Made by a program: the position numbers and the translations under genes. The notes under the pieces were generated by a model that saw nothing but the letters and a program-made list of their open reading frames with translations, was not told where the DNA came from and did not search any database. Of a stretch of DNA of 64,000 nucleotides, positions 6,241-61,345 are shown piece by piece (within the stretch, counting starts at the first letter, position 1; every line of letters starts with the position of its first letter). The stretch is from NCBI RefSeq assembly GCF_902168435.1, contig NZ_LR656165.1, forward strand, positions 359,201 to 423,200, in the 5' to 3' direction. The DNA comes from Bacillus marasmi. GTDB taxonomy: Bacteria; Bacillota; Bacilli; Bacillales; Cytobacillaceae.

Positions 6241-7080
6241 AGCTATTTGAGGGTACTTAGGCGTTGGTTATTTGCCCTATTTTTGGTAGGAAATCAATTT
6301 GAGGGTACTTAGCCCTTCTATGCACCCTCTTTTTTGTTGACCAACAATTTGAGGGTACTTAGGCGTTCTATGTACCCTAATTTTGGTTGACCAACAATTT
6401 GAGGGCACTTAGGCATGGTCTATGTACCCTATTTTTGGTTGACCAACAATTTGAGGGCACTTTGCCGTTCTATGTACCCTATTTTTGGTTGGGCGATCAA
6501 TTTGAGGGCACTTAGGCGTGGTCTATGTACCCTATTTTTGGTTGACCAACAATTTGAGGGTACTTAGCCGTTCTATGTACCCTAATTTTGGTTGGGCGAT
6601 CAATTTGAGGGCACTTAGGCGTGGTCTATGTACCCTATTTTTGGTTAATCAACAATTTGAGGGTACTTAGGTGTTCTATGTACCCTATTTTTGGTTGACC
6701 AACAATTTGAGGGCACTTAGACGTGGTCTATGTACCCTATTTTTGGTTGACCAACAATTTGAGGGCACTTAGGCGTGGTCTATGTACCCTATTTTTGGTT
6801 AACCAGCAATTTGAGGGTACATAGCCGTTCTATGTACCCTATTTTTGGTTGACCAGCAATTTGAGGGTACTTTGCCGTTCTATGTACCCTATTTTTGGTT
6901 GACCAGCAATTTGAGGGTACTTAGGCATGTTCTATGTACCCTATTTTTGGTTGACCAACAATTTGAGGGCACTTAGGCGTGGTCTATGTACCCTATTTTT
7001 GGTTAATCAACAATTTGAGGGTACTTAGCCGTTCTATGTACCCTATTTTTGTTCGGCAATCAATTTGAGGGCACTAAAAA
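6241..7080. repeat. Tandem hairpin array A, 17 units of 50-52 bp
   Basis: Seventeen GGG(T/C)AC left arms start at 6251, 6303, 6353, 6403, 6455, 6506, 6558, 6609, 6661, 6711, 6763, 6815, 6865, 6915, 6967, 7019 and 7069, so the period is 50-52 bp. Most units pair GAGGG(T/C)AC with GTACCCT across a variable loop (TTAGCCGTTCTAT or TTAGGCGTGGTCTAT), followed by ATTTTTGG and a GTTGACCAAC palindromic spacer. The 2-bp difference in period comes from the loop type. It fills the gap between convergent ytfP and cse60. Confidence 0.95.
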
Positions 7081-7116
7081 CTAACTAAAAAAAGGTATAT
7101 ATGCCTTTCAATGGAA

Positions 7117-7299
7117 CTATGCCCGATAAATTACCATTGCTGAGAAGCAATAAATTTGTTCGTCCTCATCCTCTTGGTAGGCTGCGACATTGTACTTGAT
7201 GTCGACCAGCTTTTTTTCGTCGAGATCCTCGAGAAACTTATTCATATCATCCTCTAAATCCTTTTCGTGCTCGTAATCGAATACCTTAACTTGTATCAC
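7117..7299 (-). CDS. cse60: Cse60-like small sporulation protein (DUF2758)
   Basis: A 60-residue acidic protein beginning VIQVKVFDYEHEKDLEDDMN and ending in EQIYCFSAMVIYRA, the pattern of B. subtilis Cse60 (DUF2758), a small protein made under the mother-cell factor sigma-E. The biochemical role is unknown. Start chosen at GTG 7299 because GGGAG lies 7 nt upstream and the family begins there; an in-frame ATG at 7356 has no RBS and would add 19 unconserved residues. It is convergent with ytfP, separated by array A. Confidence 0.75.
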   Translation of the reverse strand: MIQVKVFDYEHEKDLEDDMNKFLEDLDEKKLVDIKYNVAAYQEDEDEQIYCFSAMVIYRA

Positions 7300-7417
7300 G
7301 ACAGTCTCCCTCCGAGTTTTAGCACTATTATTGACAATTTTCGGAAAATTTAACATTTCCTTTTGGAAAAATAAAGACTGATTGGTGGTGAATTTATTTT
7401 ATTTGCCAAAAATAGTC

Positions 7418-7512
7418 ATTTATCCGACGTTTGGAGGCATTTATCCGATGTTTCTTGGCATTTATCCGACGAATTCAAAGGTTTATCCGACGTTTATAGG
7501 CATTTATCCGAT
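7418..7512. repeat. Tandem array F, 5 copies of a 21-bp unit
   Basis: TATCCGA(C/T) recurs at 7421, 7442, 7463, 7484 and 7505, an exact 21-bp period, within units like TTTATCCGACGTTTGGAGGCA. It lies in the 375-bp gap between ytwF and cse60 and is non-coding as far as I can see. Confidence 0.9.
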
Positions 7513-7529
7513 TTTCGACATAAATCGGC

Positions 7530-7604
7530 ACAAGAGCCGACACGAAAAACAAGCTACCCACTACCAGATACAAGAGCCGACACGCAAACAAGCTACCCTC
7601 CAAC
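7530..7604. repeat. Two-copy 40-bp direct repeat
   Basis: ACAAGAGCCGACACG followed by AAACAAGCTACCC occurs at 7530 and again at 7570. It sits between the 21-bp array and the ytwF terminator. Confidence 0.75.
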
Positions 7605-7625
7605 AAATACGAGCCCACCCACAAA

Positions 7626-7662
7626 AAAAATCCCGATCCACCACAAAATGGACCGGGATTTT
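7626..7662 (-). terminator. Rho-independent terminator of ytwF
   Basis: Stem AAATCCCGATCCA / TGGACCGGGATTT with one internal mismatch, flanked by an A-run on the plus strand that becomes the U-run of the minus-strand transcript, 13 bp past the ytwF stop. Confidence 0.75.
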
Positions 7663-7674
7663 CGTGCAATTAAT

Positions 7675-7983
7675 CTAGAGTACAACTTCGCCTTTCCACT
7701 CAAGCATTCCGCCGACCATGTTGCGTACCTTTACGCCATGGTCATGGAGGAACCAGCCAACACTTTCGCTGCGACGGCTTGAACGACAAACAAGGATATA
7801 TTCCTTGTCATCCTCGAAATGATCCAAATTCATCGCAATATCGCCCATCTTAATGTGCTTTGCGCCTGGAATCATTCCTTGGGCAACCTCTTCATCTTCA
7901 CGAACGTCAACGATTTCTAATTGTTCGCCCGCTTCGATTTTTTCCTGCAATTCTTCTGGTGTAATAATATTTAATCCTTCCAT
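7675..7983 (-). CDS. ytwF: Rhodanese-domain protein
   Basis: A 102-residue single rhodanese domain. The active-site loop ILVCRSSRRS carries the catalytic Cys that would accept sulfane sulphur. The early motif IVDVREDEEVAQG is the usual rhodanese substrate-side strand. It is probably a cytoplasmic thiosulphate/persulphide sulphurtransferase; the partner is unknown. Start at ATG 7983, 7 nt after GGAAG; an upstream TTG at 7989 is too close to that RBS. It has its own terminator and lies downstream of leuS, as in B. subtilis. Confidence 0.82.
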   Translation of the reverse strand: MEGLNIITPEELQEKIEAGEQLEIVDVREDEEVAQGMIPGAKHIKMGDIAMNLDHFEDDKEYILVCRSSRRSESVGWFLHDHGVKVRNMVGGMLEWKGEVVL

Positions 7984-8002
7984 CCCCAAACTTCCTTTCT
8001 AT

Positions 8003-8033
8003 AAAAGGCGGATGATTTGAGCCATCATCCGCC
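8003..8033 (-). terminator. Rho-independent terminator of leuS
   Basis: On the minus strand GGCGGATGAT / ATCATCCGCC (10 bp, loop of 7) is followed by TTTT. It lies between the leuS stop and the ytwF RBS, so ytwF may have its own promoter or depend on readthrough. Confidence 0.85.
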
Positions 8034-8076
8034 CTAAATATCATAACTAAAGTTATGAACCCCTTTATTTTACATG

Positions 8077-10491
8077 TTAATTTGCAACAATATTAACTAA
8101 TTTGCCTGGTACGGCGATGACTTTACGAACCGTTTTGCCATCGATTTGTTCTTTCACCTTGTCATCGTGCATCGCAATTTCTTCTAATGCCTCACGAGTT
8201 GCGTCTGAAGGCACGAATAATTTTGCTTTTACTTTACCGTTAATTTGAACGACAATTTCCACTTCGTCATCAACAAGCTTTGCTTCGTCATATGCTGGCC
8301 AGCCTTCGTAAGAAAGTGTTCTTTCATGACCAAGTTTTTCCCAAAGCTCTTCAGAAACGTGTGGCGCAATCGGCGCTAGCATTTTAACAAAGCCTTCAGC
8401 GAAATGTTTTGGTAAAACTTCAGCTTTATATGCCTCATTAATAAATACCATCATTTGTGAAATAGCTGTATTGAAGCGAAGACCTTCGTAGTCCTCAGTT
8501 ACCTTCTTAACAGTTTGATGGTAAACCTTTTCTAGAGTAGCGTCTTCACTTTGGACGATTTTTGCACTTAGGTCACCATTGTCCTCAATAAACAAGCGCC
8601 AAATTCGATCTAAGAAACGACGAGAACCGTCTAGGCCATTTGTCGACCAAGCAATGGAAGCATCAAGTGGACCCATGAACATTTCGTATAAACGTAATGT
8701 ATCCGCACCGTGGCTTGTGACGATATCGTCTGGATTGACGACATTACCTTTTGATTTACTCATTTTTTCGTTATTTTCACCAAGAATCATTCCTTGGTTA
8801 AATAGCTTTTGGAATGGTTCCTTTGTAGGTACCACACCGATATCATATAGGAATTTGTGCCAGAAACGAGCATACAATAAGTGAAGCACGGCATGCTCCG
8901 CTCCACCGATATAAATATCAACAGGCAGCCATTCGTTTAATTTTTCAGCCGAGGCTAACGCATCTTGATTGTTTGGATCGATATAGCGCAAATAGTACCA
9001 ACAGCTACCAGCCCATTGTGGCATCGTGTTCGTTTCACGACGACCTTTTTTCCCTGTTTCAGGGTCGACAACGTTCACCCAATCAGAGATAATCGCAAGT
9101 GGTGATTCGCCTGTTCCGGATGGCTTGATTTCAGTTGTTTTAGGTAGCACTAATGGTAGCTCTTCCTCTGGAACAGCTGACATGGTGCCATCTTCCCAAT
9201 GGATGATAGGAATTGGTTCGCCCCAATAACGCTGACGGCTGAATAACCAGTCGCGCAAGCGGTAAGTTACCTTCTTTGTACCGATACCTTTTTCCTCTAA
9301 CCAAGCGATCATGGCAGCAATACCGTCAGTCTTGTTCATTCCATCTAAGAATCCAGAATTAACATGTGGACCATCGCCAGTAAAGGCCTCTTCCGTTACA
9401 TCGCCACCAGCTAAAACTTCGATAATTGGCAGCTCGAACACTTTAGCAAACTCATAATCTCGTTCGTCATGAGCTGGAACGGCCATAATCGCACCGCTGC
9501 CATAGCTCATCAAGACATAATCAGCAATCCAGATTGGCATTTTCGCGTCATTGACTGGATTCACTGCATAAGCTCCTGTGAACACACCTGTTTTTTCTTT
9601 TGCTAGATCAGTTCGTTCTAAGTCACTCTTGCTCTTAATTTTATCTAAATAGGCTGCAACCGCGTCGCGTTGTTCTGCAGTCGTAATTTCACTTACTAAT
9701 GGATGCTCTGGAGCAAGCACACAGTATGTTGCACCAAACAGAGTATCTGGACGAGTTGTGAACACGGTGAAGGATTCACTGTGTCCATCGATTCCAAATG
9801 TTACTTCGGCTCCTTCTGAACGGCCAATCCAATTGCGTTGCATTTCTTTAATGCTTTCAGGCCAATCAACCTCTTCAAGATCCTCTAACAAACGATCTGC
9901 ATAAGCGGTAATGCGAAGCATCCACTGCTTCATCGGACGGCGTTCAACTGGATGACCACCACGTTCGCTTTTTCCATCAATAACTTCTTCATTTGCTAAA
10001 ACAGTTCCAAGTGCTGGGCACCAGTTTACAGCAACTTCATCAATATAGGCTAAGCCGCGCTTATACAATTGTAAGAAGATCCATTGTGTCCATTTATAAT
10101 AGTTTGGATCAGTTGTGTTGACTTCACGGTCCCAATCATAGGAAAATCCTAGTGCCTTGATTTGGCGACGGAAATTATCAATATTTTGCTTTGTAAATTC
10201 AGCAGGGTCATTGCCTGTGTCAAGTGCATATTGCTCGGCAGGTAGACCAAACGCATCCCAGCCCATTGGGTGCAATACGTTATAGCCTTGCATGCGTTTT
10301 AGTCTTGAAAGAATGTCTGTTGCGGTATAGCCTTCTGGGTGTCCAACATGTAAGCCTGCTCCTGAAGGATATGGGAACATGTCTAACGCATAGAATTTGC
10401 GTTTTCCCTTTTCTTCGCTTGTTTTAAACGTTTTATTTTCTTCCCAATACGTTTGCCATTTTTTTTCAATCTCCTGATGATTGAAACTCAT
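8077..10491 (-). CDS. leuS: Leucyl-tRNA synthetase
   Basis: An 804-residue class Ia synthetase that charges tRNA-Leu. The HIGH-type motif is HVGH (48-51), within [16 protein letters not shown]. The KMSKS loop is [10 protein letters not shown] at about residue 575. The CP1 editing domain lies between them (about 220-410), with the threonine-rich TTRPDT motif. GGAGG precedes the ATG, and a leucine-specific T-box lies upstream. Length and motifs are typical of bacterial LeuRS. Confidence 0.98.
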
Positions 10492-10631
10492 AGGTTTTTT
10501 CCTCCTATTTTCTATATGTATAGTTTTTTTATTTTTGCTGTTTTAATTTGCCGGTTGATTTCCTCTCCAGGCGCTTCACACCAATCAACCTCTTGTAACT
10601 CAAATAGTCAACAAATACTATATCAAATTAC

Positions 10632-10666
10632 AAAAAAACCCCTCATCCCAAAATAGGGACGAGAGG
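10632..10666 (-). terminator. T-box attenuator terminator of leuS
   Basis: Minus-strand hairpin CCTCTCGTCCC / GGGATGAGGGG followed by TTTTTTTG. Its 5' side competes with the antiterminator formed around the T-box sequence at 10,681-10,693. Confidence 0.9.
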
Positions 10667-10880
10667 TCTGATTATATCTCCCGCGGTACCACCCACATTA
10701 GTGTATACACACTCACTTCATACATCCTTAACGCGGAGAACGGCAAGTACTACTAATCTTTCACACCTGCGACTCGAAGGCGAGTTCATGAAGGGCCTGA
10801 TTGACTTGCACCAAACGTCAACTCTCTAAAGCAGGCTTACTAGCATTACTACTCCTTGTCCATGTCTTTAATCAAACTAT
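10632..10880 (-). promoter_or_regulatory. T-box riboswitch, leucine specific (specifier CTC)
   Basis: Minus-strand leader with the canonical T-box motif GGTGGTACCGCGG at 10,681-10,693. Stem I has the conserved AGAGAGTTGACG and GGTGCAAGTC elements. In the specifier loop, GAACTCGCC reads CTC (10,782-10,784) followed by a purine, matching tRNA-Leu(GAG). Uncharged tRNA-Leu should stabilise the antiterminator and switch leuS on. Confidence 0.95.
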
Positions 10881-10886
10881 AACGCT

Positions 10887-10915
10887 ATTGTATAAAATTT
10901 CCCTTTCACATGCAA
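10887..10915 (-). promoter_or_regulatory. Sigma-A promoter of leuS T-box transcript
   Basis: TTGCAT, 17-bp spacer, TACAAT on the minus strand, placing the start near 10,880, just before T-box stem I. Confidence 0.8.
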
Positions 10916-11016
10916 GTCTTGTCAAGCTAGCATCTAAAAAGGTACTACATATTGTATGCTGGGCACCAGGATACGTGCGCCACACAGTCTTTATTTTTCC
11001 AGAAAAATAATGATTA

Positions 11017-12207
11017 TTAAGATGCTTTCACGGAGATTTCGGTATTCTTAATAATTTTTCTATCAAAAACAAAAGTACTAATTAATGAAAGTAAAAATAA
11101 CCCCATCATCACAATAAAAAGTGTATGCATATCATAAAAATCAACTAGCATTCCACCGATAATAGGACCAAGCATTCTTCCACCTGTTGCAGCACTATTG
11201 GCGATTCCCTGAAAAAATCCTTCCCTACCAGGAGGTGCCAATTTGTCTGCAATCGTCGGCACGGCTGGCCATACGAGCATTTCTCCAATTGTCATGATTA
11301 CCATTGCGATGGCAAATCCCGAAAAGTTGCTTGCTTCGGATGCAATCCAAAAGGCTAAGGCAAAAATAATCGTGCCAATCACGATTTGTGACTTTACTGT
11401 TTTCGCAAACACTATCACCAGTCTGTTCAATAATGGTTGACCTAATACAATTAACGCCCCATTAATCGTCCATAAATAGCTATATTGTCTTAAGCTGATT
11501 CCCATTTCTTGAGTATATGGAGCAACAGTTGCTTGCCATTGACTGTAACCAATCCAGCAGAGCAGGTATCCGAAGCATAGAATGAGTAATGCCGTTAACT
11601 TCGGATTAACATTGCGAATTGAGGTTGTACGAGCCTCTTTCACTTCAGAAACAGCTTGCGGACGATCCATCCCTTTATAGCCAAACACGGCTATTACTAG
11701 AAACACTACATACAAGACAGCGTTGGCAATGAAAATCCACTGAAATGAAATGGCCGCCACCATTCCACCAAAAGCAGAACCAACAGCGACTCCTAAATTT
11801 GAAGCCACGTAAATCGCGTTAAAAGCCCTTCTGCCACCTTCCTTCCAGACAGATCCCGCCATCGCGTACATCGAAGGAAAAATCATCCCTGTGCCAAAAC
11901 CGATAATCGTTAGAAAAATAACATAATGAGGCCAGGTATTCCAAAAGGTCAAACCGATAAGAGCTATTAAAGTTAACACAATTCCTGATAAAATCGAGCG
12001 GTACCCGCCGAGGCGATCGAATAGTCGACCACCGAGCAAATTACCGATGACACTTGCTCCCGAATTTAACATTAAAACAATGCCTGCCACTGTTAAGGAC
12101 TTATCTAAATGTTCATGAATATATATCGAGTTTAACGGCCATAAAAATGAAGCACCCGTGACATTAACCGCCATCCCGATTACTAACAACCAAACTGCGC
12201 GTGGCAT
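11017..12207 (-). CDS. yttB: MFS-family transporter, probable multidrug exporter
   Basis: A 396-residue protein with 12 predicted membrane segments. The A-like loop motif GNLLGGRLFDRLGGYRSIL lies between segments 2 and 3, which marks the major facilitator superfamily. Proton-coupled drug efflux is the usual assignment for this branch (B. subtilis YttB); the substrate is unknown. Start chosen at ATG 12207, 6 nt after GGGGA; the frame extends 12 codons further upstream but that stretch overlaps a leader hairpin. It lies beside leuS as in B. subtilis. Confidence 0.8.
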   Translation of the reverse strand: MPRAVWLLVIGMAVNVTGASFLWPLNSIYIHEHLDKSLTVAGIVLMLNSGASVIGNLLGGRLFDRLGGYRSILSGIVLTLIALIGLTFWNTWPHYVIFLTIIGFGTGMIFPSMYAMAGSVWKEGGRRAFNAIYVASNLGVAVGSAFGGMVAAISFQWIFIANAVLYVVFLVIAVFGYKGMDRPQAVSEVKEARTTSIRNVNPKLTALLILCFGYLLCWIGYSQWQATVAPYTQEMGISLRQYSYLWTINGALIVLGQPLLNRLVIVFAKTVKSQIVIGTIIFALAFWIASEASNFSGFAIAMVIMTIGEMLVWPAVPTIADKLAPPGREGFFQGIANSAATGGRMLGPIIGGMLVDFYDMHTLFIVMMGLFLLSLISTFVFDRKIIKNTEISVKAS

Positions 12208-12226
12208 AACTATTTCCCCTTCATAT

Positions 12227-12256
12227 GAAAAGCGCAAGCACAAAAATGCTTACGCT
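12227..12256 (-). other. Terminator-like leader hairpin upstream of the MFS gene
   Basis: On the minus strand AGCGTAAGCA / TGCTTGCGCT (10 bp, one wobble) followed by TTTTC ends about 20 nt before the MFS start codon. There is no room for a promoter between it and the RBS, so it may attenuate the gene or act as an operator. Confidence 0.55.
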
Positions 12257-12445
12257 GAACGTCAATGTTTTTATATTAAAATAATATTATTCCTTTTCAT
12301 TGTGCTTGGCAATAGCTTTTCTTACCGTCATAATCTTCAGTTAATCAGTGACTTTTTCCATTGACGAAACGTCATGAATTTGTCACAATTACTGCATATG
12401 AAGTGTCTAGCACAAGCTCCAAGGAGCTTCTGCTTTTCTCATAAG

Positions 12446-12479
12446 AAAACACCAGGTAACCGCCATTACCTAGTGTTTT
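12446..12479 (-). terminator. Terminator of the nrf operon
   Basis: AAAACACCAGGTAA / TTACCTAGTGTTTT, a 14-bp stem with one mismatch and a 6-nt loop, 12 bp past the nrfA stop. Confidence 0.8.
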
Positions 12480-12490
12480 CGATAACGATA

Positions 12491-13933: not shown

Positions 13934-14450
13934 TGTTTATAGAACCTCCCTTATCTTCTAATAACTCTCCCGGTTTTGGTGCTTTGTAGAAATCTTCTGT
14001 TTTAAAGCCTTTTCCATGCGGTACTGATTGATGACACTTAATACAGCTTTCTTTTACATCATGAGAAACATTATCTAAAGTGCTTGAATGGCAACTCACG
14101 CAGTTTGAATTGATCGCTTCCTCTGAACCTTGAGTTGGATGTAGGACCTCTGGGATTTTTGATTCCCCTAAACTATTAAAGTAAACGTGTCCAATCCCTG
14201 ATTTAGCTTTGAATGTATATTTACTAACTAAGGAATCGTGTGGTAAGTGGCAATCAGCACACGCTAATTCAGCATGAGTAGAATCTACGAATGAATCATA
14301 AACATTGTTCATGATATGACAGCTCTTACAAAACTCCGCAGAATCTGTATACGCTAATGTTTTCGCAGTGACCACCGACGCGATAATCCCAACAAACAAA
14401 CCAATAACCAGCAGCAAGCGTTTATCAATTGCCAGCAACTTTTTCAACAT
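13926..14450 (-). CDS. nrfH: NrfH, tetrahaem menaquinol dehydrogenase subunit (NapC/NirT family)
   Basis: A 174-residue membrane-anchored cytochrome. One N-terminal transmembrane helix (about residues 12-30) is followed by four haem motifs: CKSCH (41-45), CADCH (64-68), CVSCH (117-121) and CIKCH (136-140). NrfH oxidises menaquinol and feeds NrfA; menaquinone is made by the men genes in this window. Start at ATG 14450, 8 nt after GGAGG; an upstream GTG overlaps that RBS. It overlaps nrfA by 8 nt, which suggests translational coupling. Confidence 0.95.
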   Translation of the reverse strand: MLKKLLAIDKRLLLVIGLFVGIIASVVTAKTLAYTDSAEFCKSCHIMNNVYDSFVDSTHAELACADCHLPHDSLVSKYTFKAKSGIGHVYFNSLGESKIPEVLHPTQGSEEAINSNCVSCHSSTLDNVSHDVKESCIKCHQSVPHGKGFKTEDFYKAPKPGELLEDKGGSINNG

Positions 14451-14516
14451 GTTTTTCACCTCCCCAGAAATTTAAAAAATATCTATTAAAACACTTAAAA
14501 GGTGCTCTAACCAAAG

Positions 14517-15020: not shown

Positions 15021-15035
15021 AACCAACACCACCTT

Positions 15036-15748: not shown

Positions 15749-15808
15749 GATGTCCCTCCTTCGCGATCATCGGGCTTTGAATTCATATCGGATGTGTAAA
15801 GCTTTCCA

Positions 15809-16279: not shown

Positions 16280-16283
16280 GTCA

Positions 16284-18366: not shown

Positions 18367-19353
18367 CTATTTCGCCAGCTTTTGCAGCAGTTCTTGATAT
18401 TCTTCTTCTGTAATGCTGCCTTCGAGAAGCATACTTCTAAGACGCTTTTTCTTTTTATCAAGGTCAGCTTGTCCTACATCAACAGTTTGTTTTTGCTTTT
18501 TGTTTTTTGCATCTTTTTTGGTTTGGTTCCCTCTTTTTTTGAGGATAATGATGATCGCAGCGGCAATCACGATGCAAACGCCACTAATCACGCCGATAAT
18601 AATCCCAATCGGAAGTGTTTCATTATCCTTCGCAACACCTTTAGCTGCCGTCTGGTTACCCATTTCGTTCATAATATCCATAGTCGTTTTCGTTTCAGTG
18701 CGATCATACTTTAAGGTGTATTCCTTCACATCACCAGGCTTCATTCCCTGGTACTGGTACATAAACATGTTCATTCCATAACCATTTTCTTGATGAGATT
18801 CCGCAGCTGGAGTTAGGCTAAAGCTCTCCGTCTTTAATGGCTCTAAGAATAAAACGCGAACCATTCCAATGTCAGCAAAGCTTTCAAATTTGTAGCTCAA
18901 CGTATGATTGTCTTTGTTAACCTTAATGTCGTTTGTGTAATACTCGATTACAAATTTATATAGCTCACCTGGTTGAACCTCTTCAGTTGTTGTCCAGGCA
19001 ATTGTGCCTTTGTTTTTATCAATTTCGTATTCAATTTCATACATATTGGTTTGATCACGGTTATAATCCGCTACATAACCAATTTTGAAATCCTTCGCTT
19101 TTAGTGGTAGCGGAATTTCAATTTGTCCTTTTTGTGGCTTGTCGCTGTTATTGATCAATGTTCCATGTAATCCTACTAATAGCGGCGATTGATCCATCTT
19201 TTTATCTTCTGGATGGAAGGAATACTCTGGCATCACTTGAATCGAGAGCTCTTCCATTTTTAGTACTGGTTCGTTTGTATTGGCAAAAGCAATGTTTGGG
19301 AGAATGAGCATTAAACAGGTTATAACTAATAAAGCAACCTTTTGTTTTCGCAT
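18367..19353 (-). CDS. Unrecognised secreted-domain membrane protein, first gene of the nrf/ccm operon
   Basis: A 328-residue protein that I do not recognise. It has a signal peptide ending near AFA-NT (about residue 24), an extracytoplasmic domain of about 220 residues rich in beta-strand-like segments (for example GQIEIPLPLKAKDFKIGYV), one transmembrane helix (about 255-277), and a basic cytoplasmic tail. The tail ends in a SHOCT-like motif, KKRLRSMLLEGSITEEEYQELLQKL. ATG 19353 follows AGGAAG by 6 nt. Its place at the head of the operon suggests a role in cytochrome assembly or sensing, but no catalytic residues stand out. Confidence 0.75.
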   Translation of the reverse strand: MRKQKVALLVITCLMLILPNIAFANTNEPVLKMEELSIQVMPEYSFHPEDKKMDQSPLLVGLHGTLINNSDKPQKGQIEIPLPLKAKDFKIGYVADYNRDQTNMYEIEYEIDKNKGTIAWTTTEEVQPGELYKFVIEYYTNDIKVNKDNHTLSYKFESFADIGMVRVLFLEPLKTESFSLTPAAESHQENGYGMNMFMYQYQGMKPGDVKEYTLKYDRTETKTTMDIMNEMGNQTAAKGVAKDNETLPIGIIIGVISGVCIVIAAAIIIILKKRGNQTKKDAKNKKQKQTVDVGQADLDKKKKRLRSMLLEGSITEEEYQELLQKLAK

Positions 19354-19435
19354 CGTTGTCTTCCTTTCTGAACAGACGTTGTCGGTCATTTATTTAATGA
19401 TTATGTTCTTGTCCATCATTATTTTTACTTGGTTC

Positions 19436-19508: not shown

Positions 19509-19644
19509 CATTTTTTTCAAGTTCGTTACTACTTTGTGAACACGAATTAACACTGTTGTTGTAGTGTTTTCTGAGTTGTCGTTTCGTTGGGCTCATATCT
19601 ATTCACTCATCCAATTCACTTATCAATTTTAATTGCTGTATTTT

Positions 19645-19975
19645 GAACTCATGGAAGGCTCATGAGGTCATTTCTTCAAATTTCTTGGTCCGTTTTGAAC
19701 TCATGAAAGGCTCATGAGTTCATTTCTTCAAATTTCTTGGTCCGTTTTGAACTCATGAAAGGCTCATGAGGTCATTTTTTCAAATTTCTCGGCACGTTTT
19801 GAACTCATGAAAGGCTCATGAGGTCATTTCTTCAAATTTCTCGGCACGTTTTGAACTCATGAAAGGCTCATGGGGTCATTTCTTCAATTTTCTCGGCATG
19901 TTTTGAACTCATGGATGGCTCATGAGGTCATTTCTTCAAATTCCTTGGTCCGTTTTGAACTCATGATTGAAATAG
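19645..19975. repeat. Tandem hairpin array B, 7 units of exactly 52 bp
   Basis: GAACTCATG starts at 19645, 19697, 19749, 19801, 19853, 19905 and 19957. Units carry CTCATGA-AAGGC-TCATGAG, a 7-bp inverted repeat with a 5-nt loop, then TTTC and TTCAAATTTCT. It lies upstream of the nrf/ccm promoter, behind the 59-residue gene, in a 678-bp gap. Confidence 0.95.
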
Positions 19976-27420: not shown

Positions 27421-28098
27421 GGATGGGCATCAATCTTGCGCTTTGATTCCCATTTTTTCGCGGTTTCAAATTTTTGGGCATCAATTAGGCGCTTTGATTC
27501 CCATTTTTTCGTGGCTTTAGATTTTTGGGCATCAATTAGGCGCTTTGATTCCCATTTTTTCGTGGTTTCAGATTTTCGGGCATCAATCTTGCTCTTTGAT
27601 TCCCATTTTTTCGCGGTTTCAGATTTTTGGGCATCAATCACACGCTTTGATTCCCATTTTTTCGTTGTTTCAGATTTTTGGGCATCAATCTTGCGCTTTG
27701 ATTCCCATTTTTTTGTGGTTTCAAATTTTTGGGCATCAATCAGGCGCTTTGATTCCCATTTTTTTGTGGCTTCAGATTTTTAGGCATCAATTAGGCGCTT
27801 TGATTCCCATTTTTTCGCGGCCACAGATTTTTGGGCATCAATGTTGCGCTTTGATTCCCATTTTTTCATAGCTTTAGATTTTTAGGCATCAATTAGGCGC
27901 TTTGATTCCCATTTTTTCGCGGCCACAGATTTTTGGGCTTCAATGTTGCGCTTTGATTCCCATTTTTTTGTGGTTTCAAATTTTTGGGCATCAATGTTGC
28001 TCTTTGATTCCCATTTTTTCGTGGTTTCAGATTTTTGGGCATCAATGTTGCTCTTTGATTCCCATTTTTCCACGGTTTCAATTTTTTTGGCATCAATC
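27421..28098. repeat. Tandem hairpin array C, 14 units of exactly 51 bp
   Basis: The GGGCATCAAT arm starts at 27425 and recurs every 51 bp to 28088. Each unit pairs GGGCATCAA with TTTGATTCCC (one mismatch) across a variable loop (TCTTGCGC, TTAGGCGC, TCACACGC, TGTTGCTC), then has ATTTTTTCG and a GTGGTTTCAGATTTTT spacer. Read on the plus strand the hairpin plus T-run looks like a weak terminator. It lies between metK and asnB, which are both on the minus strand. The open frames through it are a by-product of the 17-codon period. Confidence 0.95.
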
Positions 28099-28121
28099 TT
28101 TATTTCTTAAATTGAAAAATC

Positions 28122-29557: not shown

Positions 29558-29760
29558 AAAAAAACCTTCCCTACTAATTGAGGAAAGGTTTGAGAATCAA
29601 TTTGCGCCTTTCACTCTTATCGTTCAAGGTTGAACCTTGCGTCAGGTTAGCACCTTTTCTAGAAAAAAATCATAAAGCTAAATTTTTTTAGCCGATTTTT
29701 TTCTTAGCAGGTTGCTGGGTTTCATAGGGCCTGTCCCTCCACCAGCTCGGGATAAGAGAG
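29558..29760 (-). promoter_or_regulatory. SAM-I (S-box) riboswitch and terminator controlling metK
   Basis: Aptamer 29,614-29,759: P1 strands CTCTTATC and GATAAGAG, the GGTGGAGGGA and GGCCCTATGAAACCC core, CAGCAACC and the GTGCTAACC signature. A terminator (AAACCTTTCCTC / GTAGGGAAGGTTT, then a T-run) lies at 29,555-29,592. High SAM should end transcription before metK. Confidence 0.97.
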
Positions 29761-51162: not shown

Positions 51163-51194
51163 GACCCAGGTGTTATTTGCACTTGGGTCTTTTC
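51163..51194 (+). terminator. Terminator of menA
   Basis: GACCCAGGTG / CACTTGGGTC (one wobble) followed by TTTTC, 24 bp past the menA stop. Confidence 0.8.
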
Positions 51195-51235: not shown

Positions 51236-51606
51236 CAGTTTGCTAGTTGGTTTCGGGGTTACACATAAAATAAGTAATCAATAAGGGTGATTGGCTATTT
51301 GGTTTTAAGGGATATACATAAAATATGTACTCAATAGGGGCGATTGGCTACTTCGTTTTCAGGGGTACACATAAAATAAGTACTCAATGAGGGCGATTGG
51401 CTACTTGGTTTTAAGGGGTACACATAAAACAAGTACTCAATGAGGGTGATTGGCTACTTCGTTTTCAGGGTTGCGCATAAACCAAGTAACCAATGAGCGC
51501 GATTGGCTACTTCGTTTTCGGGGGTACGAATAAAATAACTACTCAATGAAGGTGATTGGCTACTTCGTTTTAAGGGGTACACATAAAATAAGTAATCAAT
51601 AAGAGT
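51236..51606. repeat. Tandem hairpin array D, 7 units of 53 bp
   Basis: GATTGGCTA begins at 51289, 51342, 51395, 51448, 51501 and 51554, with a partial unit before. Units pair GGGTAC with GTACTC across ACATAAAATAA. Arms change together: GGTTAC/GTAATC in unit 1, GGGTAC/GTACTC in unit 3, GGTTGC/GTAACC in unit 5. It lies between convergent menA and glgP. Confidence 0.93.
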
Positions 51607-51676: not shown

Positions 51677-51706
51677 GGCTCAGGAGCATAATCCCGAGCC
51701 ATTTTT
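51677..51706. terminator. Bidirectional terminator, glgP side
   Basis: GGCTCAGGA / TCCCGAGCC with one mismatch and T-runs on both strands, just beyond the glgP stop. Confidence 0.7.
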
Positions 51707-51718
51707 TATAATCAGACA

Positions 51719-54124: not shown

Positions 54125-55559
54125 TCCTTGATATCAGTTCGGAATAAAGCCGATTGTATTGAAATGCTGATTGCGCCCAGCTATAATCCTTTGACATCGT
54201 TGTTTTCACCAACTTTTTCCAAGTTGGTTTTTTATAATGATAGAAAGATAAGGAACGACGCAATGTATACAGCATATCGTGTGCATTGAAGTTCGTGAAC
54301 GAAAATCCATTCCCTTTATCCGACCATTCATCATATGCTTGTACCGTATCATTTAGTCCGCCAGTTTCCCGAACGAGCGGGATACTACCATAACGCATGG
54401 CAATCAATTGTCCTAGACCACAAGGCTCGAATTTAGACGGCATCAAGAACAAATCAGAGCCAGCATAAAGCTGGTGTGCCCATTCTTCATTGAAGCCAAT
54501 TTGAACTCGGACCTGGTCTGGATAACGGTGCTCCATTTCACGGAAGAACCATTCGAACTCCAAATCCCCCGTACCCAACACGACCATTTGAATTTTTTCT
54601 GCCATCATCTCATGAAAAACAGCTTTAACAAGATCAAGACCCTTTTGCTTTGTTAATCGAGTAATCATCGCCACAATCGGAATGTCATCGTTTTGCGGAA
54701 GACCGAGTGTTTTTTGAATAAAACGTTTATTCTCAAGCTTCTTCTCCAACTTCTGCACATCATAATTTTGATGAATAAGCGGATCATTAGCAGGATTATA
54801 AAATTCATCATCAATCCCGTTTAAAATCCCCTTTAAATCAGATTGGCGTTTACGAAGAAGACCATCCAGCTTTTCACCGAAATATGCCGTTTGAATTTCC
54901 TCGAGATATGTCGGACTAACGGTCGTGATCATGTCCGCCGACACAAGGCCGGCTTTCATGAAATTGATATTTCCGAAAAACTCTAAATGATCCTGATTAA
55001 AATACTTGCTGTGAATACCTAATAAATCATCCATCGTTTCTTTCGGAAAAACACCTTGAAACATTAAATTGTGAATCGTAAAAATCGTACGGATGAATTC
55101 ATAGCCTGGCTTGCGGTAATATTCAACCCGATACAAGAATGGAATCATTCCAGTATGCCAATCGTGGCAATGGATAATATCTGGGGAAAAATCCAAATGA
55201 CTGATCGCATCGAGGACAGCACGATTAAAAAAGGCAAATCTCTCTCCATCATCGAAATATCCATATAAACCATCACGTTTAAAATAATACTCGTTGTCAA
55301 TAAAGTAATACGTTACTCCATCAAGCTTAAGCTCCATAACTCCACAATATTGATTTCTCCAACCAACCTTGACAGTGAAATCAGTTACTTTCTTCATCTT
55401 AAGCTTATACTTTTGGGCGATCATTCCATAGTTTGGAAGAATCACGCGAATATCAGTACCTTGATTCACAAGCTCCTGTGGCAGGGAACCAGCAACATCT
55501 GCAAGCCCACCTGATTTGATAAATGGAGTACATTCTGAGACTGCAAACAATATTTTCAC
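54105..55559 (-). CDS. glgA: Glycogen synthase (ADP-glucose)
   Basis: A 484-residue GT5 enzyme extending alpha-1,4-glucan. N-terminal ADP-glucose motif [16 protein letters not shown], later [11 protein letters not shown] and the E-x7-E region [19 protein letters not shown]. The start is GTG 55559, overlapping the glgD stop by 4 nt. It overlaps glgP by 20 nt. Confidence 0.95.
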
Positions 55560-56578
55560 GAATTCATCAGAGCTCCTTGAACCGTATCCTTGCGAAGAAT
55601 TTTTGGTGCATCTGGTGAAACACGAATTCTTCTTCCAGACTCAATAATTACATCTTTATCTAGAATGACATTTTCCAGAATGCAATTATCGCTAATCTCA
55701 CATTTTTGTAGTATCACACTATTTTTGATGACGGTATTTTTCCCAACTTTTACGCCTCTGGCAATGATGCTGTTTTCAACTCTTCCATCAATTTGGCAGC
55801 CATTGGCAATCATCGAGTTTTGAATCGACGCCTCTTTCGCATATAGCGTCGGTGGCTCATCCATTACCTTCGTAAAGATTGGCTGATCCTTTTGGAAGAA
55901 TTTTTTCCAAATCGCTGGCTGTAAAAACTCCATGCTCGTTTCATAATACTTTTTCACAGAGTCAACCATCACTGCATAGCCTTTAAATTGGTAATAACAA
56001 ACCTTGTAATCATGATTCAGTGAATGAACAACATCATTCATTGAAGTAAATCCTGTTTTCTCATGGTTCTCCAGTAGCTCAATTAATAGAGATGTCTTTA
56101 ATAAGTACATATCCATCGACTTGCCCTCATGACGAAGCTCAGTAATATCGCAATCTGCATCGATATGCGCATCTAAAATCGTCCGGAAATCGATATTGGC
56201 CACTGTAAAGCAATTCGCAACTAATGTATATTCCTGTGAGCTACGCTTGAAAAAGCTTAAATGTGCAGCAAACTGATCAAACGAGTTGCCCCCATTAGGC
56301 AGGTCGAACAATTGTGGTGGAAATAAGAACAACCCATCGCGCTTGCGGTTTAAATCCCAATTTCTACCGGATCCTAAATGATCCATAAGTGAGTGATATT
56401 GATATTTTGGAAAAAGTGCTACACTTTTAATACCCGAATTCACCATGCTAGATAGCACAAAATCAATTAATCGGTAGCGTCCCGCAAATGGAACAGCCGC
56501 CAAAGACCGTTCGATAATAAGCTCCTCTAGATCCCCTTTATAGGTTGCATCGATTACCCCTAATAATTTCTTTTTCAA
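55556..56578 (-). CDS. glgD: GlgD, ADP-glucose pyrophosphorylase regulatory subunit
   Basis: A 340-residue nucleotidyltransferase-fold protein with a left-handed beta-helix C-terminus. The catalytic GGxGxR pyrophosphorylase loop of GlgC is absent (here [20 protein letters not shown]), as expected for the GlgD subunit, which boosts GlgC in Bacillus. The start is TTG 56578 after GGAGGG. Confidence 0.92.
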
Positions 56579-56632
56579 CGCTGAAACCCTCCCAATTATT
56601 TATCTATCGCAAACAAATTTCGCTTTATCTTT

Positions 56633-57811
56633 TTATCCAATCTTCTTTTTCAGCGTCGATTCTGTTTGTATTTCTATGTCATCAAGCATCTCTTCTGATA
56701 CTAAAATAATGCCCTCTGGGTCTTCCGTACCACGAATCACTGCCCCATCTGGTATGGTTATCCCTCCAGGAATAATCGCCTTCTCAATGTACACGTTTCT
56801 ACCAATTACGGCTTCTGGCATGATCACTGATTCACGTACCACCGCGCCGGCTTCAATCGTAACTCCTTGGAAGATGACAGAGCGTTCCACATCTCCTTCA
56901 ATTGTGCAGCCTTCGTTAATCATCGAACCTAACACGGAGGCTTGCGGTGAAATATATTGTGGAGGCTGGTTCGGATTGACAGAATAGATGCGCCATGATG
57001 GATCAAATAGATTCAATTCGCATTTTTCATCCAACAGGTCCATATTCGCTTCCCAAAGGCTGCGAACAGTACCAACATCCTTCCAATAGCCTTTAAAAGG
57101 ATAAGCTACTAGCTTTTTCTCTTCCTCTAACAAGCGTGGAATAATATCCTTTCCAAAATCGTGACTGGAATTCGGAGTGTCATTATCCTTGATCAAGTAT
57201 TCTTTTAACACCTTCCAATTGAAGATGTAAATTCCCATCGAAGCTAAATTGCTTTTTGGAAAATCTGGCTTTTCTTCAAACTCAGTGATGCTCATATCAT
57301 CCGCAGCATTCATGATGCCAAAGCGGCTCGCTTCATCCCATGGAACCTCAATAACTGATATCGTTACATCCGCGCCTTTTTCCTTGTGGAAATCTAGCAT
57401 TGCTTCGTAATTCATTTTATAAATATGGTCTCCAGAAAGGATTAACACGTACTCTGGGTCATATTGGGTTAAATAATTGATATTTTGATAGATTGCACTA
57501 GCCGTACCGGAATACCATTTCACTTCCGATGTTTCTGCATATGGAGGAAGTACTGTTACTCCACCGTTTCTTCTATCTAAATCCCATGCACTGCCGATGC
57601 CGATATATGAATTCAATAATAGCGGTTGGTACTGAGTTAAAACACCAACTGTATCGATGCCTGAATTTGTGCAATTACTTAATGCAAAATCAATAATTCG
57701 ATATTTTCCTCCAAATGGTACAGCCGGCTTAGCAATCTCCTTTGTTAAGGAATTAAGCCTGCTTCCCTTTCCTCCTGCCAACAGCATGGCGACGCACTTT
57801 TTCTTTCCCAC
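56633..57811 (-). CDS. glgC: Glucose-1-phosphate adenylyltransferase
   Basis: A 392-residue catalytic subunit making ADP-glucose. The loop [20 protein letters not shown] and the substrate site [11 protein letters not shown] are present, followed by hexapeptide repeats. The start is GTG 57811 after GGAG. It overlaps the 3' end of glgB by 59 nt, so the two are coupled. Confidence 0.95.
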
Positions 57812-59702
57812 TATCTCCCAGCTCCTTTCTTTGTTTTACAGGGCGCAATACAGTGATTCCAAAAGGAGGAATCGTCATTTCAATCTGGTACGGTCTACCG
57901 TGAAATGGTTCATCTATTGCTTTAAGTACTTTCTTATTAACATTATTAGCACCACCGAAATCGGTAGCATCACTATTGATAATTTCTCGATAGGTTCCTG
58001 CCTTTGGTACCCCTACTTTATAATTTTCATATGGTAGCTCACTAAAATTGCACACCACAATCAAAAATTCATCGGAGCCTGTTCCTTTACGAATAAATGA
58101 AAAAATAGACTGATCTTGATTGTTTACATCTATCCATTCAAACCCCTCATACGTATGATCCAGCTCGTATAATGGTTTTGAACGCTTATATATTTTTAAT
58201 AATTGTTTCCAATACTCATTCATCTTAACGTGCATCTCATAGTCAAATAAGTTCCAATCTAACTGTTCCTTATCCTTCCATTCGGAAAACTGACCAAATT
58301 CTGTTCCCATAAACAGTAATTTTTTCCCTGGATGAGCCATCATGTAGCCAAGCAACAATCTTAGTTGCGCAAACTTACGCCAATAATCCCCAGGCATTTT
58401 ATTCAGAAGTGATTTCTTTCCATGAACAACCTCATCGTGTGAAAAAGGAAGTATGAATTTTTCTGAAAAGGCATATAGAAAAGAGAATGTGACCTTATTG
58501 TGCTGCGTAGAACGATGCTCCGGTTCTGTTTCCATGTAGCTCAGCATGTCATTCATCCAGCCCATATTCCATTTATAGCTGAAGCCGAGTCCGCCGTGTT
58601 CAACCGGTACCGTTACTTGGGGCCAATCCGTGGAATCTTCCGCAATCATCATAACCGTAGGATCCTGTTGGTGGACAATCTGATTTAAATGCTTTAGAAA
58701 ATCAAGTCCAAACGTATTCACATGTTGGCCGTCTGAATTTGGCCAGAAAATGATGTTTGAAACTGCATCTACTCTAAATCCATCGATATGGTAATGTTTC
58801 ATCCAAAACAGCGCGTTGGAAATTAAAAAGCTATGAACCTCTTTCTTACCTAAATCAAAATTAGCTGTTCCCCAAACATGATTTTCACGATCATGTTCTG
58901 CTTTGTATTCATAAGCGTAATCTCCATCAAACCGATACAGGCCATGAGCATCCTTACAAAAATGCCCCGGTACCCAATCTAGAATAACTCCTAGTCCGTG
59001 CTGATGACATTGATCAACAAAATACATAAAATCATCTGGTGTGCCATAACGACTTGTTAAGGAATAATATCCAACACCTTGATATCCCCAAGAGATATCG
59101 AGCGGGTGTTCAACAAGTGGTAATAGCTCCACATGGGTAAATCCCTCATCAAGTACATAAGGAATTAACTCATCAGCCAATTCACGATAATTTAGGAAGC
59201 TTTCGTCTTCTTTTTTCTTCCACGAGCCTGCATGGACTTCATAGATCACCATCGGATCATTAGCCGCACTTTTTCTTGCCTTCTTCCGCTTCCATGCCTG
59301 GTCGTTCCATTTGTAACCGTCTAGGTTGTATACAACTGAAGCTGTACGTGGTCTCAGCTCTGAGTAGAAACCATATGGGTCAGCTTTTAAAAGTCGTTCC
59401 CCAGTTTGCGAAATAATTTCATACTTGTATAATGAGCCCTCAAGGTTTCCCTCGAGAACGAGCACCCAAACTCCCTCTTTATTTAACTTATGTAACGAAT
59501 ACCCCAATCCATTCCAATTATTAAAATCTCCAACAACATTTACCTCTGTTGCATGTGGAGCCCACACACAAAATCTAGTAAATTGTCTACTATCTTCTTC
59601 AAAGATATGTGCACCAAATAATTGATAGCCTTCATACAATGTACCAGCATGAAAAAGATATAATTCAAACTCAGTTGGTAAAAATGTTTTCACTGTCATA
59701 TG
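57753..59702 (-). CDS. glgB: 1,4-Alpha-glucan branching enzyme
   Basis: A 649-residue GH13 branching enzyme. An N-terminal CBM48 (about 20-110) precedes the barrel; nucleophile Asp in [11 protein letters not shown], acid Glu in IAEDSTDWP, and [12 protein letters not shown]. The C-terminal tail is basic ([14 protein letters not shown]) and encoded over the glgC start. ATG 59702 is used. First gene of glgBCDAP; in B. subtilis this operon is sporulation-controlled (sigma-E). Confidence 0.95.
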
Positions 59703-59910
59703 ACACCCCGCCACCCTTTTTTTACTTGGCCTATTTAGTACTATACCTCGATATCCATTATTATCCTACCGATAATTTTCCAAATATTAAGACAGTATCT
59801 GTTCTTTTATGATACATACCGAGTCGATTCACTGTGATTTGTTCTAATTCGACATATTTTACATGTTGATTTGACAAAATAAACATAAACACAAAAGGGG
59901 GTCTATTAAA

Positions 59911-60102
59911 ATGAAAGCGCAACCAGGAAAACGGCTAGAAAACAACGAAGAGAAGGTCCCACTATTTGAGGCTCCAGATGGAAAAATACTAGCGACAGGC
60001 GATATGTTCCGAGGTCCTTCCACAGGATTTATATCAGATCTAGATCTAAACAATCCTGGTTCAAAATTACCATCAGATGATATAGAACAGCAGTTGAGGT
60101 AG
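59911..60102 (+). CDS. Small hypothetical protein
   Basis: A 63-residue soluble protein, MKAQPGKRLENNEEKVPLFE, with a Gly/Pro/Asp-rich second half (GDMFRGPSTGFISDLDLNNPGS). I do not recognise it. AAAAGGGGG lies 8 nt before the ATG, a strong RBS that supports translation. It is divergent from glgB and followed by array E. Confidence 0.6.
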   Translation: MKAQPGKRLENNEEKVPLFEAPDGKILATGDMFRGPSTGFISDLDLNNPGSKLPSDDIEQQLR

Positions 60103-60269
60103 TTGTATAACACCTGTATTTTGTTATTTTAAAATAACATTTTTGGAATTTTTTGTAATTTGGTTGGAAATTTATAAGTGGTGGCACGATATGAAGTTTA
60201 AGTTACCGCTGAGACGATTTTTGCTTGATTATGGGAATCATTCATTTGCTATGGTTCTCGTTATGATCG

Positions 60270-61345
60270 ATTATTGGGGCGATCGGGCATCATACGTCTC
60301 CTATGGTTACCGTTTCGATTCTTTTTGGGGGTTATTGGGCATCATACGCCTCCAATGGTTACCGTTATGATTGATTTTTGGGGTGGTCGGGCATCATACG
60401 CCTCCTATGGTTACCGTTCGGTTTGTTTTTTGGGCGGCACGGGCATCATACGCCTCCTATGGTTACCGTTCGGTTTGTTTTTTGGGGTGGACGGGTATCA
60501 TACAGCCTCTATGGTTACCGTTCGGTTTGTTTTTTGGGTGGCACGGGCATCATACGCCTTCTATGGTTACCGTTCGGTTTGTTTTTTGGGGTGGACGGGT
60601 ATCATACAGCCTCTATGGTTACCGTTCGGTTTGTTTTTTGGGCGGCACGGGCATCATACGCCTTCTATGGTTACCGTTCGGTTTATTTTTTGGGGTGGAC
60701 GGGTATCATACAGCCTCTATGGTTACCGTTCGGTTTGTTTTTTGGGTGGCACGGGCATCATACGCCTTCTATGGTTACCGTTCGGTTTGTTTTTTGGGGT
60801 GGACGGGCATCATACGCCTCCTATGGTTACCGTTCGGTTTGTTTTTTGGGGTGGACGGGTATCATACAGCCTCTATGGTTACCGTTCGGTTTGTTTTTTG
60901 GGCGGCACGGGCATCATACGCCTCCTATGGTTACCGTTCGGTTTGTTTTTTGGGTGGCACGGGCATCATACGCCTTCTATGGTTACCGTTCGGTTTGTTT
61001 TTTGGGGTGGACGGGCATCATACGGCCTCTATGGTTACCGTTCGGTTTGTTTTTGGGGATGGACGGGCACCATACGCCTCCTATGGTTACCGTTCGGTTT
61101 GTTTTTTTGGGTGGACGGGCATCATACAGCCTCTATGGTTACCGTTCGGTTTGTTTTTTGGGTGGCACGGGCATCATACGCCTTCTATGGTTACCGTTCG
61201 GTTTGTTTTTGGGGATGGACGGGCACCATACGCCTCCTATGGTTACCGCTGCGATTCATTTTGGCGGTGATTGGGCATCATACACCTCCTATGGTTACAG
61301 TTGCTATCCATTATTGGACGGCACGGGCATCATACACTCGCTTGC
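60270..61345. repeat. Tandem hairpin array E, 21 units of exactly 52 bp
   Basis: GGG(C/T)A(T/C)CATAC arms begin at 60285 and recur every 52 bp to 61325 with no slip. Each unit has imperfect arms GGGCATCATA / TATGGTTACC, a short loop (CGCCTCC, CAGCCTC, CGCCTTC), then CGTTCGGTTTG and a run of 4-7 T. Because 52 is one more than a multiple of 3 and the unit lacks stops, all three plus frames stay open for 299-368 codons; none has a good RBS and I do not call them genes. It ends just before the tRNA terminator. Confidence 0.97.

What the first reader, a model, noticed from the sequence alone, without database searches (positions are those of the whole stretch)
6241..61345. Five sequence-unrelated intergenic arrays share one 50-53 bp hairpin-unit architecture
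Seen directly: arrays at 6.2, 19.6, 27.4, 51.2 and 60.3 kb have units of 50-52, 52, 51, 53 and 52 bp, copy numbers 17, 7, 14, 7 and 21. Their sequences do not align with each other, yet each unit is an imperfect inverted repeat of about 20-27 nt with a variable loop, then about 25 nt of spacer, T-rich in arrays A, B, C and E. 51-53 bp is close to five helical turns, so all hairpins in an array face the same side of the helix. I know of no named repeat family with this design. Possible roles are nucleoid or topology control, RNA hairpin strings at transcript ends, or a shared expansion mechanism acting on different seeds.
Basis: partly seen in the sequence, partly recalled or inferred. Interest (0 to 1): 0.85.

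Follow-up and report, generated by a model that had tools for sequence, protein, structure and literature searches.

The report
Known 52-bp Bacillus satellite hairpin arrays
The five arrays belong to an already published but unexplained class of bacterial satellite DNA with a fixed 52-letter repeat; here many of the repeats turn out to share one hairpin shape that is kept by matched mutations and mostly points the same way relative to chromosome copying, which gives a concrete handle on what they do.

Summary
In detail: five intergenic arrays with 50-53 bp hairpin units. The class is not new: Subirana and Messeguer described constant-size (52 nt), variable-sequence tandem repeats in Bacillus, with the same two guesses at function, nucleoid or RNA (PMC8161180, whole text read). 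In this genome 48 arrays occur in 1.74 Mb scanned, sharply peaked at 51-53 bp. Many share one anatomy: a 27-nt imperfect hairpin (11+5+11, dyad on a base, G2-C26 pair invariant in 21 of 21 hairpins aligned) plus a 25-nt linker. Stems covary between families and are less variable than linkers in 22 of 23 arrays. Two points I did not find in that text: arrays are A-rich on the leading strand (42 of 48 own; 26 of 35 in other genomes), and hairpin feet are polar to replication (28 of 34). G-U and A-C stem changes are equal (10:10), which does not favour RNA. Best reading: DNA-level hairpin arrays sensed as folded strands, probably on the lagging-strand template, with fast turnover near gene ends. 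The factor is unknown, about a third of arrays (24 of 76 tested) show no significant hairpin, and replication is not cleanly separated from transcription.

The parts
6224..7075 (-). Array A: about 16.7 units of 50/52 bp, hairpin AGGGTACATAG-aacgc-CTAAGTACCCT on the leading (-) strand; between an aminoacetone-oxidase-family gene (+) and a rhodanese/leuS region (-)
   Evidence: same-family array of about 4.4 units at this spot in G004, unrelated 52-bp array in G065
19641..19966 (-). Array B: 6.3 units of 52 bp, hairpin TGACCTCATGA-gcctt-TCATGAGTTCA; between a 340-aa gene (-) and the mnmL/ytqA gene (+)
27424..28100 (-). Array C: 13.3 units of 51 bp, hairpin GGGAATCAAAG-cgcaa-GATTGATGCCC; between metK (-) and asnB (-), after a long terminator-like inverted repeat seen by eye and before a promoter-like site
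   Evidence: the consensus scan gives the promoter-like site at 27304-27277 but does not call the metK inverted repeat; no array found by TRF at this spot in G001, G002, G004, G061, G065
51251..51600 (-). Array D: 6.6 units of 53 bp, hairpin AGTAGCCAATC-gccct-CATTGAGTACT; between menA (+) and glgP (-)
   Evidence: no array at this spot in G002, G003, G004; another 51-bp family just downstream of glgP in G065 and C-type units in G001
60284..61302 (-). Array E: 19.6-21 units of 52 bp, hairpin GGTAACCATAG-gaggc-GTATGATGCCC; between glgB (-) and a cluster of 21 tRNA genes (-)
   Evidence: same-family array of 7.9 units in G004 with a compensated stem change
51163..51189 (+). Terminator-like hairpin between menA and array D
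   Evidence: 1 found, mean 0.6 in shuffles, so by that scan alone not beyond chance

Best explanation
These are members of the published 52-nt satellite class of Bacillus and relatives. In the commonest form each unit is a DNA-level module: a 27-nt imperfect hairpin with an invariant G-C pair near its foot, a mismatch-prone step at stem positions 3-4 and a 5-9 nt loop, followed by a 25-nt linker. Selection keeps the hairpin able to pair and keeps the unit at about five helical turns. The module is polar to replication: on the leading strand, which has the sequence of the lagging-strand template, the linkers are mostly A-rich and the TGCCC foot is mostly 3'. The most likely working is that the hairpin folds on exposed lagging-strand template, or by cruciform extrusion, and is recognised by its foot and shape by a cellular factor. 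Tandem copies at five-turn spacing would present many such sites on one face. Copy number and location change fast by unequal recombination or slippage, and arrays survive mainly in gaps near gene 3' ends. Shown: period, geometry, covariation, stem constraint, biased polarity, turnover between species. Inferred: single-strand folding, the factor, the benefit.
For: Class identity: PMC8161180. Period; successive TGCCC-foot hairpins 51/52/53 apart in 31/92/4 of 127 steps, some counted on both strands. Geometry: dyad on a base in 44 of 48 palindromes with score>=8, against 76:66 odd:even in shuffles of own and named units; 14 of 18 clusters, p 0.03. Covariation: 83.5% of cells paired against 50.7% in shuffles, score 0.766 against 0.200, slid versions at most 0.206; in 37 rows chosen by feet only, inner positions 6-10 are paired in 129 of 185 cells against 79.6 (sd 7.7, max 106) with arms swapped. 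Orthologous array E: own C7-G21, G004 G7-C21 in 6 of 8 units. Within-array divergence 0.032 stem, 0.093 linker, 0.150 loop; stem below linker in 22 of 23 arrays, permuted-column control 431 of 920. Polarity: A-rich on leading strand 29 of 33, mean AT skew +0.221 against +0.025 in 281 array-free gaps >=250 bp; 12 of 13 in C27/C23, analysed after the prediction was noted; 14 of 17 in named genomes. Feet: 19 against 4 own, 9 against 2 elsewhere. DNA rather than RNA: GU 10, AC 10 events.
Against: 12 of 36 own arrays have no palindrome at p<=0.05. Polarity is imperfect: 6 of 9 in G001, and 6 of 9 in stretches of other relatives (G002, G023, G028, G031, G034), several with near-zero skew. With the leading strand set by GC skew, 37 of 48 own arrays agree rather than 42. 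The two polarity signals disagree in 6 of 23 arrays, three each way. Replication and transcription directions largely coincide, so polarity could reflect transcription. Unoriented G-U to A-C is 16:10. No candidate factor was found. 'Lagging-strand template' rests on polarity alone. Published RNA-seq hits show that such arrays are transcribed in B. coagulans (PMC8625621, passages).
Confidence: 0.4

Rival explanations
1. RNA hairpin strings: arrays are transcribed by read-through or their own promoters and act as sponges or structured RNAs; A-rich linkers and loops on the co-directional strand are the single-stranded parts of that RNA.
For: Arrays in B. coagulans are hit by RNA-seq reads (PMC8625621, passages; also stated in PMC8161180). 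Arrays lie near gene 3' ends. Linkers are A-rich on the leading strand, which is usually also the sense strand: the T-rich strand equals the gene strand in only 2 of 16 tandem contexts.
Against: No excess of G-U over A-C in stems on the leading-strand sense: 10 against 10 unit-level events, 4 against 9 in 20 consensus hairpins. A terminator-like hairpin stands between stop codon and array in 26 of 60 facing gene ends, against 185 of 826 ends without arrays (no test run). No Rfam family at gathering threshold in the window's arrays.
Confidence: 0.26
2. Double-stranded DNA platform: a dimeric nucleoid protein binds each palindrome as a duplex, five turns apart on one face, and polymerises along the array.
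For: Period near five helical turns; invariant G2/C26; a protein that needs a constant repeat size to polymerise is the authors' own suggestion (PMC8161180).
Against: Inner arms differ strongly between families within one genome and covary as base pairs, which a duplex reader would need several paralogues to explain; feet are asymmetric and polar.
Confidence: 0.15
3. Neutral by-product: hairpins promote slippage or recombination, so any hairpin seed expands; polarity reflects orientation-dependent stability at the fork, with no host function.
For: Empty or differently filled orthologous spots; location in tolerant gaps.
Against: Period 51-53 in different families and genera; stems less variable than linkers in 22 of 23 arrays; compensated stem changes.
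Confidence: 0.14
4. REP-like mobile hairpins moved by a Y1 (RAYT-type) transposase.
For: Imperfect hairpins with a conserved foot; strand polarity; Y1_Tnp matches in the own genome (2) and in 18 of 20 named genomes.
Against: None of 4 Y1 genes examined (2 own, 2 G001) has unit-like hairpins within 2 kb. Y1_Tnp also occurs in genomes whose single locus of about 20 kb showed no 52-bp array (whole genomes not scanned). Spot C looks like a replacement, not a clean insertion.
Confidence: 0.05

Closest known systems
52-nt tandem repeats (satellites) of Bacillus and other Firmicutes, Subirana and Messeguer 2020/2021 (PMC8161180 whole text read; the 2020 J Bacteriol paper is not held)
   Same: 51-53 nt unit, variable sequence, several families per genome, non-coding, short signals often present with their reverse in one repeat, partial conservation between strains; selenatarsenatis, boroniphilus, subterraneus and mesonae, relatives of this organism, are on their list
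   Different: The main text models RNA folds but gives no common hairpin geometry, no covariation or stem-constraint test, and no replication or gene-end orientation; it states no sequence conservation, whereas feet and the G2-C26 pair recur here across genera. Supplements were not readable here
REP/BIME elements (GTAG and CGTC superfamilies, PMC3733652, passages read)
   Same: Short imperfect extragenic palindromes with a conserved end
   Different: No Y1 transposase gene beside them in the 4 cases examined; strictly tandem at 52 bp; no shared GTAG or CGTC end inside the 21 aligned 27-nt hairpins, flanks not examined; D, not in that alignment, has GTAG near a foot
20-21 nt tandem repeats of the same papers
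   Same: Constant size near two helical turns, variable sequence; one such array (7413-7511) lies beside array A
   Different: Unit length; not analysed for hairpins here
CRISPR arrays
   Same: Hairpin-forming repeat alternating with a spacer of constant length
   Different: Linkers are repeated within an array (mean divergence 0.093), not unique

Membership tests
52-nt tandem repeats of Bacillus (Subirana and Messeguer) | Repeat length 51-53 nt | tested here: met
   array A alternates 50 and 52
52-nt tandem repeats of Bacillus (Subirana and Messeguer) | Several families of different sequence and equal length in one genome | tested here: met
52-nt tandem repeats of Bacillus (Subirana and Messeguer) | At least four repeats, not coding | tested here: met
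   window arrays have 6.3-19.6 copies; 0 of 35 own arrays inside a called gene (ORF-based calls, ORFs more than 30% covered by an array were left out beforehand)
[quoted passage not shown]
   hairpin feet
52-nt tandem repeats of Bacillus (Subirana and Messeguer) | Only partly conserved between strains, variable copy number | tested here: inconclusive
   shown between species; no second strain of the same species was compared
REP / RAYT (REPtron) | Hairpins flank a Y1 transposase gene | tested here: not met
   0 of 4 genes within 2 kb
REP / RAYT (REPtron) | GTAG or CGTC terminal tag | tested here: inconclusive
   no shared tag inside the 21 hairpins of A2; bases outside the 27 nt were not tested
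CRISPR array | Unique spacers | tested here: not met
Type III toxin-antitoxin RNA arrays | Repeats directly upstream of a toxin gene | not tested
   the array-flanking window genes that gave NCBIfam matches look like housekeeping genes; no toxin model was searched

The most novel reading that the evidence does not exclude
A chromosome-wide set of replication-polar hairpins: probably about a hundred arrays per genome of structurally selected 27-nt hairpins that fold on the lagging-strand template and are read by a dedicated single-strand hairpin-binding factor, acting as polar landmarks or assembly sites for replication, repair or nucleoid proteins.
Probability: 0.25. Interest if true: 0.85.

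Novelty: new member of a known kind. Interest (0 to 1): 0.55.

Why it matters
The 52-nt satellites have been an unexplained class since 2020. Fixed hairpin geometry, compensated stem changes and a replication bias narrow the function from 'nucleoid or small RNA' towards something that senses a folded strand, and they make simple tests possible: array inversion, stem-breaking changes, and pull-down with folded single strands. If polarity holds across genera it would be a new kind of direction-bearing repeat in bacterial chromosomes. If it does not, the class stays a curiosity of satellite evolution.

Tried and rejected
Rejected or weakened: REP/RAYT mobility; CRISPR (linkers not unique); intrinsic-terminator strings (for C the T tracts lie on the strand opposite to metK and asnB); chance period clustering; coding repeats (52 is not a multiple of three).

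Led nowhere: C-type pattern in genome contigs and viral contigs, 0 matches each, where records near the own genome may be left out; Rfam, no family in the window's arrays; G-U against A-C, no asymmetry once oriented (16:10 unoriented).

Dropped rows: searches used 33 of 35 arrays (2 at contig edges, array E among them); one search used 23 of 36 arrays (the others had no palindrome at p<=0.12 or fewer than 4 usable units; four were listed for a hand-set frame and three were given one); one search dropped three more whose frame was doubtful, leaving 20; one search judged the own arrays with at least two foot-matching units (23 of 48), named arrays with at least one (3 of 17), and 8 of 9 G001 arrays (one had none). 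The ORF-based gene calls place arrays A and B as tandem, although the neighbours make A convergent and B divergent.

Sampling: C16 is the window's own contig; C19, C21, C23 and C30 were known to hold a C-type array, and C27 a Y1 gene, so the density per Mb may be somewhat high. Of the 13 arrays in the prediction test one (C23b 9306) was already known. The G001 stretches used for polarity were mostly picked for C-type hits.
Full report
WHAT IS THERE. TRF confirms five intergenic arrays in the window, with periods 50/52, 52, 51, 53 and 52, shown unit by unit. They lie by an aminoacetone-oxidase-family gene and leuS (A), upstream of mnmL/ytqA (B), between metK and asnB (C; metK by DNA similarity), between menA and glgP (D), and between glgB and a cluster of 21 tRNA genes (E). 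The nearest named genomes by AsnB are Mesobacillus, Neobacillus, Cytobacillus and related Bacillus species; the record of the organism itself may have been left out of that list.

GENOME-WIDE PICTURE. Array C has five homologous arrays elsewhere in the genome; in 61 genomes matches occur in 3, the own genome and two congeners (at most 9 candidates scored per genome). TRF on 1,244,073 bp gives 24 of 121 rows at 51-53 bp, and 11 of the 17 rows with period above 60 are multiples of that length. With more contigs the count is 48 merged arrays in 1,744,073 bp, covering 25,603 bp or 1.5%. Eighty asnB neighbourhoods from other genomes (1,459,114 bp) show the same narrow peak: 51:1, 52:9, 53:1, with different sequences in different genera. 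In 20 stretches from seven further relatives, arrays were seen in five (G002, G023, G028, G031, G034) and not in G015 and G026.

PRIOR ART. This is the class described by Subirana and Messeguer: constant repeat size of 52 (51-53) nt, variable sequence, several families per genome, and short signals often present with their reverse in one repeat. They suggest nucleoid stabilisation or small RNA and show RNAfold models (PMC8161180, whole text read). Their follow-up reports RNA-seq hits in B. coagulans (PMC8625621, passages); an earlier survey (PMC6749651, passages) did not show the class in the passages I saw; their 2020 J Bacteriol paper is not held. The listings of searches showed no paper on the class by other authors. 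In the text I read there is no common hairpin geometry, covariation test or replication polarity; supplements were not readable here.

HAIRPIN ANATOMY. A simple palindrome score is significant (p<=0.05, 60 shuffles) in 24 of 36 own arrays, 12 of 17 arrays of named relatives and 16 of 23 published families. Folding energy alone is weaker: 17 of 36 and 7 of 17. The commonest form is 27 nt (11+5+11, or 10+7+10, or 9+9+9) plus a 25-nt linker. The dyad falls on a base in 44 of 48 palindromes with score at least 8, against 76:66 odd:even in shuffles; after crude single-linkage clustering 14 of 18 clusters are odd (p 0.03). In 21 distinct hairpins from several genera the pair G2-C26 is invariant. In 20 own consensus hairpins oriented to the leading strand, mismatches gather at stem positions 3 and 4 (8 and 13 of 20) and at the loop end (positions 10 and 11: 8 and 11 of 20), while positions 5-9 are mostly paired (1 to 4 of 20 unpaired).

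SELECTION ON PAIRING. Counting the 11-pair stem on the 21 hairpins: 83.5% of cells paired against 50.7% in shuffles, covariation 0.766 against 0.200, and at most 0.206 for slid partners. Because those rows were picked as palindromes, a second test picked 37 hairpins by their feet alone: inner positions 6-10 are paired in 129 of 185 cells, against a mean of 79.6 (sd 7.7, maximum 106 in 1000 trials) when 3' arms are swapped. Orthologous array E differs between the own genome (C7-G21) and G004 (G7-C21 in 6 of 8 units, G-G in 2). In G065 an unrelated array at spot A carries G-C, A-T and both single-change intermediates at one stem pair. Within arrays the stem is the least variable part: 0.032 against 0.093 (linker) and 0.150 (loop); stem below linker in 22 of 23 arrays. 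With columns permuted the same kind of procedure gives 431 of 920.

POLARITY. On the leading strand, taken as the majority gene strand within 50 kb, arrays are A-rich in 29 of 33 cases, with mean AT skew +0.221 against +0.025 in 281 array-free gaps of at least 250 bp. The prediction was noted (in the same turn as the fetch, and before any analysis of it) and then checked on contigs C27 and C23: 12 of 13; in all 42 of 48. With GC skew as the definition the figure is 37 of 48, and 37 of 43 where both definitions agree. In named relatives 14 of 17 are A-rich on the AsnB strand, taken as leading from the B. subtilis arrangement (recalled). In G001, a complete genome, 6 of 9 agree by AT skew, and 6 of 9 in the other relatives by the sign of local GC skew, several of these with skews near zero: 26 of 35 outside the own genome. 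A second signal, the 3' foot TGCCC, points with the leading strand in 19 of 23 own arrays and 9 of 11 elsewhere. Of the 23, three keep the foot orientation with reversed AT skew, three (A-type, where both feet are alike) are A-rich on the leading strand with the foot reversed, and one is reversed in both. So the two signals are partly separate and neither is absolute.

CONTEXT AND TURNOVER. 14 of 33 arrays lie between convergent genes, against 113 of 710 gaps (odds ratio 3.9, p 0.0004); divergent gaps hold 3 of 33 against 143 of 710 (p 0.18) (simple ORF-based gene calls). A terminator-like hairpin lies between stop codon and array in 26 of 60 facing ends, against 185 of 826 control ends (no test run). 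TRF finds no array at spot C in G001, G002, G004, G061 and G065, nor at spot D in G002, G003 and G004. Downstream of glgP (spot D) G065 has another 51-bp family, and G001 has a few C-type units. Spot A holds the same family in G004 and an unrelated 52-bp one in G065. Spot E holds the same family in G004 and a related one in G061. At spot C the own genome also has a different inverted repeat after metK, and only the end of the relatives' terminator remains on the far side of the array, so this looks like a replacement rather than a clean insertion (by eye).

MECHANISM. Covarying inner arms argue for a strand that folds. Equal G-U and A-C changes (10:10) do not favour an RNA on the leading-strand sense. 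Asymmetric feet and biased polarity suggest that one strand is recognised, and the leading-sense strand is the one exposed as lagging-strand template. The five-turn unit would keep sites in register. The single-strand step, the factor and the benefit are inferred, and transcription direction cannot be fully separated from replication direction with these data. Y1 transposase matches occur in the own genome and in 18 of 20 named genomes, but none of 4 genes examined is flanked by unit-like hairpins.

VERDICT. A correct observation of a known, unexplained class, with new structural and polarity evidence that makes its function testable.

Noticed in passing
window 7413-7511: A 21-bp tandem array (4.7 copies, TTTATCCGACG core) lies beside array A; G004 has one of similar sequence (L230 3425-3476). 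It fits the published 20-21 nt class, near two helical turns.
   Followed up: partly
own contigs C16 129284-130132 and 153144-153607, C19 118632-119026: 52-bp arrays with a core like ATTCATTAC..CTAG show no significant hairpin, so the 27-nt hairpin is not universal in the class.
   Followed up: partly
L225 (G001), within 721-1510: A GC-rich element (GGAGCGGAAGG..CTCCTGCGGGAGTAGCGGGACAGG) sits in the menA-glgP gap of G001; it resembles a dispersed repeat of many Bacillus genomes (recalled, not searched).
   Followed up: no
own contig C30 95479-96050 and 114512-114689: Repeats built on GAAACACGGGGACGGTTC, periods 90 and 59, a separate repeat family.
   Followed up: no
window 18367-19389 (-): 340-aa gene beside array B with no NCBIfam match at E 0.001.
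   Followed up: no
G000:C27:254130-254471 and C4:4555-4881: Two Y1 transposase-like genes with open frames of about 200 aa and no unit-like hairpins nearby; similar matches occur in many relatives and might be domesticated.
   Followed up: partly
window 10652-10871 and 29614-29758: T-box leader beside leuS and a SAM riboswitch beside metK, as expected.
   Followed up: no
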